In this document: in pieces, positions 42,601 through 45,600 of the stretch
How the letters are laid out: every line of letters begins with the position of its first letter
Position numbering within the stretch: the first letter of the stretch is position 1
Program-made: the position numbers and the translations under genes
Assembly: GCA_032622095.1 (NCBI GenBank)
Contig: CP136068.1
Span: 158,667,465-158,731,464 of the forward strand
Direction of reading: 5' to 3'
DNA: 64,000 bases
Origin: Siphonodentalium dalli
Taxonomy: Eukaryota > Mollusca > Scaphopoda > Gadilida > Siphonodentaliidae
Notes under the pieces: generated by a model
Told to the model about the DNA's origin: nothing
The model's database searches: none
Seen by the model: the letters and a program-made list of their open reading frames with translations, nothing else

Positions 42601-45600
42601 ACAATATTCATCATTTGGGAACTTTAGTCTGAGTCGATGTCTCCCATAGCAGCTGTGGCCATGCAGAATGAGGTCCCAAGAGGGTGAATTTGTTGATGAT
42701 AGCCTTGCTTTGCATGATAGCATCACTAAATTCACCCTCTGGGGACCTCATTCTGTAAAGACAGGCACCCTAAACACAGGCTCGATTATAGCAGACAGAC
42801 TCCAACACATACTCAATGAAAGCAGTAATTCCTTTAACCTTTGCCTTCTTATTAATTTATTACATATTTTGTATCTGTGTAAAACATTTTGTGTCCTGGA
42901 CTAGTATTTTTTTTATCTTGATTTTTTTCACTGTAGAATGAGAACTATTTAACCTACTGATCTGACCGCGGGATGTGAATTATAAAAGCAAGCCTGAAAT
43001 ACGGTAGTGTGTATGTTATTTGCAGCATGAATTCTCCAGAGGGTGAATTTAGTGATGCTGCCCCACATTGTGGCTTAACATCACGAAATTCACCCCCTGG
43101 AGACCTCATCTTGCTTAAGCCTCATCTTCTTGGAAGTACAGTATCTATAGTCTCAAAGTAACATTATATATACTTTTTCCCCTTCTGTTCAGTTTCTATA
43201 TCACCTAATTTGCAGAAGATAAAATGCATAATGGAGATGACTAATGGGTGAACTACAACTGGGGAACTACAATCTCATCCTAGGTCTTCCATAGCAGTTG
43301 AAGCCTAAGCAGAATGGGGTTCCCAGAGAGTGAATTTCATGACTCTAGCATTCTGGGGGCCTCATTCTGCAAATGGCAGACGCACTAATTCAAGGCTTGT
43401 ATAAAAGCATCAGATAAATCTGAATTTGAGAAACTGTGTACATAATAAAATTATGGCTGTATTTATACACTTGGTCATGATACCATACAAATCACAATAC
43501 ATGATCAACGATACCAAAGCCAAAAATCTTACAGAACCTGGCTTTTGTTTACATAACAGTGTACGAACTTGACAATAACATACTATTTACGCGATATTAA
43601 GGATTGGTTTAAGAAAAATGGTGAATATTGTGATGTACACCCATTGGGGACCTCGATTATGCAATGTGTTGTCTGCCAATTTGGGGATATATAGAAACTA
43701 AACTAAAAAGAAATAGAATCTACCGGTACATGTATATGAAGAAGTTTCTATAGAAATTCTATAATAAAGAAACTATATTTTAAAGGTACTCAATCCGTAA
43801 AGAGGGTCCCCATCTCAACAGATTCTAACAACAACAATCCGAGCAGAGGGTCCTATATTACTATTTCTTTGGCTTTGGGGGTAAAAAATATTTGATTCGA
43901 GTCGAGGAACCCATCAAACAAAGCTCAGAGTTATTAGATATTGATTTTTGAAATTTGTTATGTTCTCGAGATGAGTACTAATAACTGCCGTAATCTGCTC
44001 TGGATGAGTGGATGTGTACTCCAAATCTATTCAAACAGACAAGGATGGATAACTCTAAAATCAAGTGGTAATTTTAACGCAATTTTGACTGAGTTCTGGG
44101 TCAGATAGTATTCCCGATAATGAAAAATAATAGATTTCTAAAATCGATATCTAACAAATCTGAGCTTTGATGGGTGACTTCCTCGACTCGAATCAAATAT
44201 TTTTGACCCCCGAAGCCATTGAAATAGTAATTGAGAGGAGTTTTATCGGATTGAGTACCTTTAATATTCTTTTTGTTTATGGCAGTTTTAACTGGTGGGG
44301 ACTATTTTCACAGCATACCCTGCGAAGGCATCCATGCCTTTAAACAATCTCAAGAACTGTATGTATTAACATTTCCTTTACAGAAAGACGAGGTGTTTTA
44401 GAATTGTATGTATTAACCTTTCCTTTACAGAAAGACGAGGTGTTTTAGAATTGTATGTATTAACCTTTCCTTTACAGAAAGACGAGGTGTTTTAGAATTG
44501 TATGTATTAACCTTTCCTTTACAGAAAGACGAGGTGTTTTAGAATTGTATGTATTAACCTTTCCTTTACAGAAAGACGAGGTGTTTTAGAATTGTATGTA
44601 TTAACCTTTCCTTTACAGAAAGACGAGGTGTTTTAGAATTGTATGTATTAACCTTCCTTTACAGAAAGACGAGGTGTTTTAGAATTGTATGTATTAACCT
44701 TTCCTTTACAGAAAGACGAGGTGTTTTAGAATTGTATGTATTAACCTTTCCTTTACAGAAAGACGAGGTGTTTTTGAACTTGGTCCTAGAGTATGTTCCG
44801 GAAACAGTCTACAGGGTGGCACGACACTACAGCAAATCAAAACAAACTATACCTATCCTCTATATTAAGGTAAACCATACCTATCCTCTATATTAACTAC
44901 TCTCTATACAGGGTCCGCGCTAGATTGAAATTTACTTTTGCCAAATAATTTGCCAAATGAAAATATTTTTTGCCAAATTATTTTAGCAATTGCCAAAGGG
45001 GTCGTCCCGTTTTGCAGACACCTATTGTTTTCGGTAGGTTAGGGTAGAGGTGTGAATAATCCTCTTAATGACTACTTAGGCCCTTCCTAGTTGGTTTGAT
45101 TGGATTCGTTTTTTTCTGCCCTTTTGATTATGGGAAATAACGGAGGTTTGGGTTGCATTTATAACTGTTAATTAGTTATGGATAATATAAAATGCATGCA
45201 AATATTATAACACAAAAACATGAGGTACAAACATTAACGAATTAGAAACAATGACAACAACATGCTCAGTGACCGCATAACTTGGCCATTTCATTCAGGA
45301 AATCTACTTCGTCTATTTCGCCTGCCAAGTACACTCTCTTGAATTTTCCAAGGGACGATACTTTCTTTTCTGTGGGTTCACTTTGCCACCCGCACTTGTT
45401 CGGCAGGAGTCCATAAAGCAGGGGAACCATTATACTGTCGTCGAACACGTGGACTGAATATATTTGAAGAAATATGTCGGGAGGTTTCTCGAATGTACCA
45501 TCGGCGTAGAAACGATCAGCATCGGCAAGGAACCTAAGGTTGCTGTCTGTTGCGATGATCAATATCTTGTCACTTCCACCATCGGATGCAAAAAGGAAGT

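What the first reader, a model, noticed from the sequence alone, without database searches (positions are those of the whole stretch)
44355..44869. Eight decoy copies of the exon 4 acceptor, each with a built-in stop
A 47-bp minisatellite exactly spans the intron 3/exon 4 border of GSK3. Every repeat has the same pyrimidine tract, CAG and first 16 exon bases as the real exon, but one base differs (TTTTAG for TTTTTG), so decoy use gives K-D-E-V-F-stop. The spliceosome must choose the ninth of nine near-identical acceptors or lose the product. This could act as a splicing timer or a copy-number-sensitive dampener of GSK3 dose.
Basis: partly seen in the sequence, partly recalled or inferred. Interest (0 to 1): 0.82.

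Follow-up and report, generated by a model that had tools for sequence, protein, structure and literature searches.

The report
Minisatellite duplicating a GSK3 splice acceptor
A short stretch covering the start of one exon of an animal's GSK3 gene has been copied nine times in a row; such "mirage" repeats are already known from lancelet genes, and this one looks like a recent slippage product rather than a built-in regulator.

Summary
An intact nine-exon GSK3 gene (418 aa) lies on the + strand. Its exon 4 acceptor is the last of nine tandem units of 47 bp, one of them 46 bp (44353-44774). All eight upstream acceptors keep AG; 6 of 8 have a unit identical to the real one. Any of the eight gives KDEVF-stop.

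The "design" reading is not supported. The stop lies where exon DNA meets duplicated intron DNA. With a T there, another stop follows five codons later. Of enumerated duplications of this acceptor, 68% give a premature stop. The same gene has duplicated borders at the exon 7 acceptor (in frame, no stop), the exon 7 donor (stop) and, as an old relic, the exon 5 acceptor (stop). Tandem arrays cover 10% of the window, and exon borders are hit slightly but not significantly above background. A GAACT pair exactly 47 bp apart in the one-copy join suggests slippage.

This matches the "mirages" of amphioxus genes, where published RT-PCR suggests normal splicing. Verdict: a new example of a known kind. 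Splicing, copy-number variation and the species could not be tested.

The parts
44353..44774 (+). Minisatellite of nine 47-bp units (one 46 bp) = 31 intron + 16 exon bases; spans the intron 3/exon 4 border
44384..44758 (+). Stretch holding the eight decoy exon starts (44384, 44431, 44478, 44525, 44572, 44619, 44665, 44712), each reading KDEVF-stop
44759..44869 (+). GSK3 exon 4, the only copy that leads on into the kinase frame (111 nt)
   Evidence: PDB match of the spliced protein
44354..44358 (+). GAACT, left member of a 5-bp direct repeat 47 bp apart in the one-copy join
44776..44780 (+). GAACT, right member of that direct repeat, inside exon 4
44844..44896 (+). Two 25-bp copies (96% identical, 28 bp apart) of the exon 4 end; the second is not followed by a GT donor
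   Evidence: sequence
50227..50275 (+). Old, decayed copy of the exon 5 acceptor and exon start; its exon start 50232 lies 117 bp upstream of the real one and reads LYIMY-stop
   Evidence: score 39; 0 of 1000 shuffles reach it, best 27
56475..56663 (+). 84-bp duplication of the exon 7 acceptor, 2.2 copies; decoy exon starts 56478 (no pyrimidine tract, score -3.45) and 56562 (same score as the real one), in frame, +56 or +28 aa, no stop; real start 56646
56831..57279 (+). Diverged tandem copies of the exon 7 donor region; decoy AG/GTACAG donors after 56923, 57007 and 57020 (all give a stop); two further copies have lost the GT; one partial copy (57102-57162) aligns without the donor
6522..60244 (+). 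GSK3 gene: exons 6522-6603, 34296-34486, 39276-39359, 44759-44869, 50349-50479, 55362-55468, 56646-56839, 57415-57601, 60075-60244

Best explanation
It is a recent exon-border minisatellite, a 'mirage'. A short tandem duplication that happened to cover the intron 3/exon 4 acceptor of GSK3 was probably seeded by slippage between two GAACT copies 47 bp apart, and then grew to nine units by slippage or unequal crossing-over. The duplications were tolerated because the unit nearest the exon always keeps the whole exon and its donor. Inferred step: exon 4 lies between two introns over 5 kb and is recognised as an exon, so the acceptor that makes the shortest unit with the exon 4 donor (111 nt, against 158-486 nt) is mostly used. 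Transcripts from upstream acceptors carry an early stop and would be removed as noise by nonsense-mediated decay. Shown here: the anatomy, the frames, the microhomology and the background rate. Not shown: the splicing outcome and copy-number variation.
For: Array, units and stops. GAACT copies exactly 47 bp apart in the one-copy join; a 5-base match in register near a random breakpoint is found in 198 of 20000 trials at spacings 30-159 and 289 of 20000 at spacing 47. TRF arrays, merged by hand into 48 intervals, cover 10.1% of the window and 10.8% of the gene. 3 of 16 exon borders lie in them, 1.7 expected. Border self-similarity: 3 of 16 at score 34 or more, 2.3 expected; 35% of 300 shifted sets reach this. 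A border-spanning version gave 3-4 of 16 against 1.6-3.4 expected in 12 settings, binomial P 0.15-0.57. Exon tiles are rarely duplicated (3 of 96 at score 34 or more, all 3 part of the border duplications named here) against 291 of 2087 intronic tiles, as expected if duplications inside exons are removed by selection. Enumerated duplications of the eight acceptors (4455 each) give a premature stop in 67-100%, and a stop before the real exon in 42-67%. Exon 7 decoys are in frame without a stop. Older copies have lost signals: exon 5 relic acceptor -0.69 against 8.26; two exon 7 donor copies without GT. Flanking introns are 5399 and 5479 nt. Amphioxus mirages have the same anatomy, and RT-PCR suggests normal splicing (PMC3087553, section 16 read).
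Against: No RNA evidence was available. By a simple matrix with recalled frequencies the decoys are as strong as the real site (11.79 for 6 of 8 decoys; 9.6 and 9.9 for the other two) and rank within the top 12 of 290 intron AGs, so leaky use is plausible. In human data, upstream 3' sites are preferred overall, and this preference is reduced, not clearly reversed, for exons between long introns (PMC9225289 section 9). Border counts, though never significant, lie above the expected number in every setting tried. The junction letter is A, not the T that simple slippage at GAACT would leave, so a second change or a breakpoint one base away is needed. A stop as close as this one (within 6 nt of the join) came up in only 9% of enumerated exon 4 duplications.
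Confidence: 0.82

Rival explanations
1. Copy-number-sensitive dampener: part of GSK3 transcripts use a decoy acceptor, gain the KDEVF-stop and are destroyed, so more copies mean less GSK3.
For: All 8 decoys keep AG and 6 of 8 are identical to the real acceptor unit; all give a stop in exon 4 of nine exons. Decoys at 44712 and 44665 would give exons of ordinary size, 158 and 205 nt.
Against: Identity is explained by recent homogenisation. The stop is a junction by-product and the commoner outcome of such duplications. The exon 7 border duplication of the same gene has no stop. Border hits are not significantly above background. Amphioxus mirages are reported not to disturb splicing.
Confidence: 0.08
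2. Copy-number artefact: the array is real in kind but the assembled number of units is wrong, or the assembly mixes two haplotypes.
For: Seven of nine units are identical, the kind of array that assemblers mis-size; the amphioxus globin paper reports a mirage that appears aberrantly assembled in the genome draft, and 6 against 3 units in two haplotypes.
Against: Two units carry private differences (first unit two substitutions, seventh a deletion), and neighbouring borders show older, diverged copies that are not plausible assembly doubles.
Confidence: 0.06
3. Raw material for a new exon or intron: a unit is recruited as an extra exon or exon extension. For exon 7 the decoy at 56562 would add 28 aa in frame.
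For: In-frame open reading through both exon 7 copies, equal acceptor score 5.46 at 56562 and 56646; intron gain from mirages is proposed in PMC3087553.
Against: The insert would fall inside the kinase domain before DVWSAG; the exon 4 unit has a stop, and its donor-like GTATGT scores only 2.97.
Confidence: 0.04

Closest known systems
[quoted passage not shown] also reported for PGBD5 and troponin C)
   Same: Tandem units spanning an exon-intron border, duplicating real splice signals, at acceptors and at donors; several units with near-identical members; unit sizes of 10-160 bp reported, 47 and 84 bp here.
   Different: Different gene (GSK3), nine units, and perhaps a different animal (species not determined). 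For published cases RT-PCR or haplotype data are reported; here there are none.
Competition between equal splice sites (Reed and Maniatis proximity rule, seen only as cited; Carranza et al. 2022, PMC9225289)
   Same: Sites of equal strength compete in cis and context decides; in that paper's exon-defined minigenes with two identical 5' sites, the one nearer across the exon was chosen exclusively (abstract, section 9 and passages read).
   Different: Those are constructs or human alternative sites, in pairs; here nine natural acceptors with only 16 nt of exon behind each decoy. Its 3'-site result is weaker than its 5'-site result.
Intron gain by tandem duplication of splice sites (Rogers 1989, seen only as cited in PMC3087553)
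   Same: Duplication of a segment holding splice signals.
   Different: No new intron is evident; the original exon structure still gives a full GSK3 protein.

Membership tests
Amphioxus-type mirage (exon-border minisatellite) | Head-to-tail repeat whose unit spans an exon-intron border | tested here: met
Amphioxus-type mirage (exon-border minisatellite) | Authentic exon intact beside the array | tested here: met
   418-aa GSK3 from nine exons
Amphioxus-type mirage (exon-border minisatellite) | Inner units homogenised, edge units divergent | tested here: inconclusive
   7 of 9 units identical and the first (edge) unit differs, but the other odd unit is the seventh (inner) and the last (edge) unit is identical to the rest
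Amphioxus-type mirage (exon-border minisatellite) | Length variation between haplotypes or individuals | not testable with these tools
   no second haplotype and no genome held
Amphioxus-type mirage (exon-border minisatellite) | Regular splicing not disturbed | not testable with these tools
   no RNA data
Amphioxus-type mirage (exon-border minisatellite) | Host is a cephalochordate (all the cases I saw in print are) | not testable with these tools
   species not given, no eukaryote collection; the protein looks to me like a lophotrochozoan GSK3, which is recall only
Regulated poison splice site | Stop and decoy sites kept by selection rather than by recency | tested here: inconclusive
   units too young to judge; a stop is the commoner outcome without selection; the exon 7 counterpart lacks a stop
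Regulated poison splice site | Measured use of the decoy with decay of its transcripts | not testable with these tools
   no RNA data

The most novel reading that the evidence does not exclude
GSK3 dose in this animal varies between individuals, or between cells through somatic repeat instability, with the number of decoy acceptors: each extra unit captures a share of U2AF/U2 and sends transcripts to decay.
Probability: 0.06. Interest if true: 0.75.

Novelty: new member of a known kind. Interest (0 to 1): 0.27.

Why it matters
It is a natural version of a duplicated-splice-site experiment: nine acceptors, seven of them identical over 47 bp including the real one, in a conserved kinase gene, with older copies at other exons of the same gene. 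It would allow a direct RNA test of how the spliceosome picks among equal acceptors. If the host is not a lancelet, it also suggests that mirages are not special to lancelets but follow from a high rate of short tandem duplication.

Tried and rejected
Chance similarity: rejected. Pseudogene: rejected, full open reading frame with GT/AG at every border. Significant enrichment of duplications at exon borders: not found, though counts lie slightly above expectation in every setting. RNA structure hiding the decoys: the 530-nt region folds less well than shuffles (z +2.15; 99 of 100 shuffles fold at least as well). Known RNA family in the window: none at gathering score. Micro-exon reading of the unit: the donor-like GTATGT scores only 2.97 in the inner units. 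Relatives in viral contigs: 22 pattern matches, none confirmed. Literature: 10 searches ran. No listed title or abstract start names a GSK3 exon-border minisatellite, but the term sets were narrow and searches listed only 10 of 152, 20 of 746, 8 of 32 and 12 of 14 papers. PMC4039745 (abstract only) links a C. elegans minisatellite to alternative splicing. PMC12783039 (passages) mentions exon 4 duplications and intron minisatellites in earthworm metallothionein genes, not units spanning a border; PMC2206037 (passages) mentions tandem repeats only as an assembly problem.

Weak points of my own scripts: the splice matrices use recalled frequencies, and one unrelated AG in intron 3 (39468, 12.2) scores above the real acceptor. 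In that call the exon 4 donor got no rank through an end-of-range slip (its score is 6.87), and the exon 9 stop figure counted the gene's own stop; one search repeats the count without it. Exon coordinates were partly off by a few bases and were corrected.

Full report
What is there. The window holds a complete GSK3 gene on the + strand: nine exons with GT/AG borders, 1257 nt of coding sequence, 418 aa. Residues 1-417 of the protein match GSK3-beta structures (best E 1.3e-217), and it matches Pfam Pkinase. At 44353-44774 lie nine head-to-tail units of 47 bp (one of 46), each with 31 bases of intron end and 16 bases of exon 4. Seven of the nine units, the real one among them, are identical; the first has two substitutions and the seventh lacks a T. 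Every one of the eight upstream acceptors, if joined to exon 3, gives KDEVF-stop.

Where the stop comes from. In the decoys the 16 exon bases end in TTTT and the duplicated intron begins AGAATTG, so the frame meets TAG at the join. It is not a mutated exon base. If the A is replaced by T in a script, the frame still stops five codons later (KDEVFLNCMY-stop). I enumerated 4455 duplications at each of the gene's eight acceptors (6-60 exon bases, 20-100 intron bases). A premature stop somewhere in the exon results in 67-100%, and a stop before the real exon in 42-67%; for exon 4 the figures are 68% and 59% (the exon 4 intron end is the first unit with its left flank as a stand-in for the one-copy site). 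A stop is therefore the commoner result. A stop as close as this one, within 6 nt of the join, is less common: 9% for exon 4.

How it arose. When the flanks are joined as a one-copy site, GAACT occurs twice, exactly 47 bp apart. A 5-base match in register in an 11-base zone around a random breakpoint is seen in 1.0% of 20000 trials at spacings 30-159, and in 1.4% of 20000 at spacing 47. This is a plausible seed for a slipped duplication. The observed junction letter A (not T) needs one further change or a breakpoint one base to the left, so the slippage model is inferred, not proved.

It is not alone. The same gene carries an 84-bp duplication over the exon 7 acceptor. Its second copy, at 56562, has the same acceptor score as the real site (5.46) and reads in frame for 28 extra residues without a stop; the first copy, at 56478, has no pyrimidine tract (score -3.45) but is also in frame. 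The exon 7 donor is followed by diverged copies: three keep AG/GTACAG and lead to a stop, two have lost the GT, and one partial copy aligns without the donor. Exon 5 has an old upstream copy of its start (score 39; best of 1000 shuffles 27) whose acceptor has decayed (-0.69 against 8.26). The end of exon 4 also has a 25-bp second copy 28 bp on. Some of these decoys lead to stops and some do not, which argues against stops being a design feature.

Is this more than background? The window is full of tandem arrays: the 66 TRF rows, merged by hand into 48 intervals, cover 10.1% of the bases. With a 40-base segment centred on each of 16 exon borders and a search 400 bases to either side, 3 of 16 reach score 34, against 2.3 expected from 3000 random positions and a mean of 2.0 in 300 shifted border sets, 35% of which reach 3. 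A stricter border-spanning version in 12 settings gives 3-4 of 16 against 1.6-3.4 expected, P 0.15-0.57. The counts are above expectation in every setting but never significantly. The positions are not independent, so the P values are rough, and 16 borders give little power: a modest enrichment is not excluded. Within exons, duplicated tiles are rare: 3 of 96 (all three belonging to the border duplications above) against 291 of 2087 intronic tiles at score 34. Random duplication with removal of those that harm the coding sequence accounts for the pattern.

What the spliceosome probably does. By a simple matrix with recalled frequencies, six of eight decoys score exactly as the real site (11.79) and two lower (9.6, 9.9); all nine rank in the top 12 of 290 AGs of intron 3, one unrelated AG scoring higher. 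Local strength cannot tell them apart. Introns 3 and 4 are 5399 and 5479 nt, and exon 4 with the real acceptor is 111 nt against 158-486 nt with decoys. A genome-wide human study concludes that, between long introns, sites closest across the exon are favoured (PMC9225289, abstract), and in its minigenes the upstream of two identical 5' sites was used exclusively (passages), which fits use of the real exon 7 donor. For 3' sites, however, its section 9 says that upstream use is preferred overall and that this preference is significantly reduced between long introns. Predominant use of 44759 is thus my inference, with leakage plausible.

Known kind. [quoted passage not shown] The PGBD5 paper (PMC3902484, one passage) reports imperfect 60- and 108-bp repeats over splice sites and cites Adh and troponin C mirages as not producing aberrant mRNA. 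The original Adh paper is not held. The array here has the same anatomy. Whether the host is a lancelet is unknown.

Verdict. A confirmed and neat observation, a new example of a known kind, most likely a passenger. The regulatory reading is open but has no support beyond the sequence.

Noticed in passing
44909-46783: A hAT-like transposon in intron 4: CAGGG...CCCTG ends and flanking TCTCTATA/CCTCTATA (7 of 8 alike, read by eye), with a FLYWCH zinc-finger ORF on the minus strand at 45642-46001 (E 2.6e-08). The class name is recalled, not tested.
   Followed up: partly
45986-46052: A perfect 30-bp inverted repeat with a 7-bp loop, overlapping the start of the FLYWCH ORF.
   Followed up: no
56475-56663: Exon 7 acceptor duplicated (84 bp, a multiple of three); use of the decoy at 56562 would insert 28 aa in frame before DVWSAG.
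   Followed up: partly
56831-57279: Exon 7 donor duplicated in a diverged array: the three nearer copies keep the GT, two farther ones have lost it.
   Followed up: partly
50227-50275: Decayed second copy of the exon 5 start, 117 bp upstream of the real one.
   Followed up: yes
39124-39242: 28-bp array just upstream of exon 3 that does not reach the exon.
   Followed up: no
7790-8419: A 209-codon stop-to-stop ORF in intron 1 with no Pfam match at E 0.001.
   Followed up: partly
12102-12582, 14474-15437: Large 22-bp arrays (GTTCGAACGTGCGAGC..., TATCTTGCTGCAGCAAGTTAGC) in intron 1.
   Followed up: no
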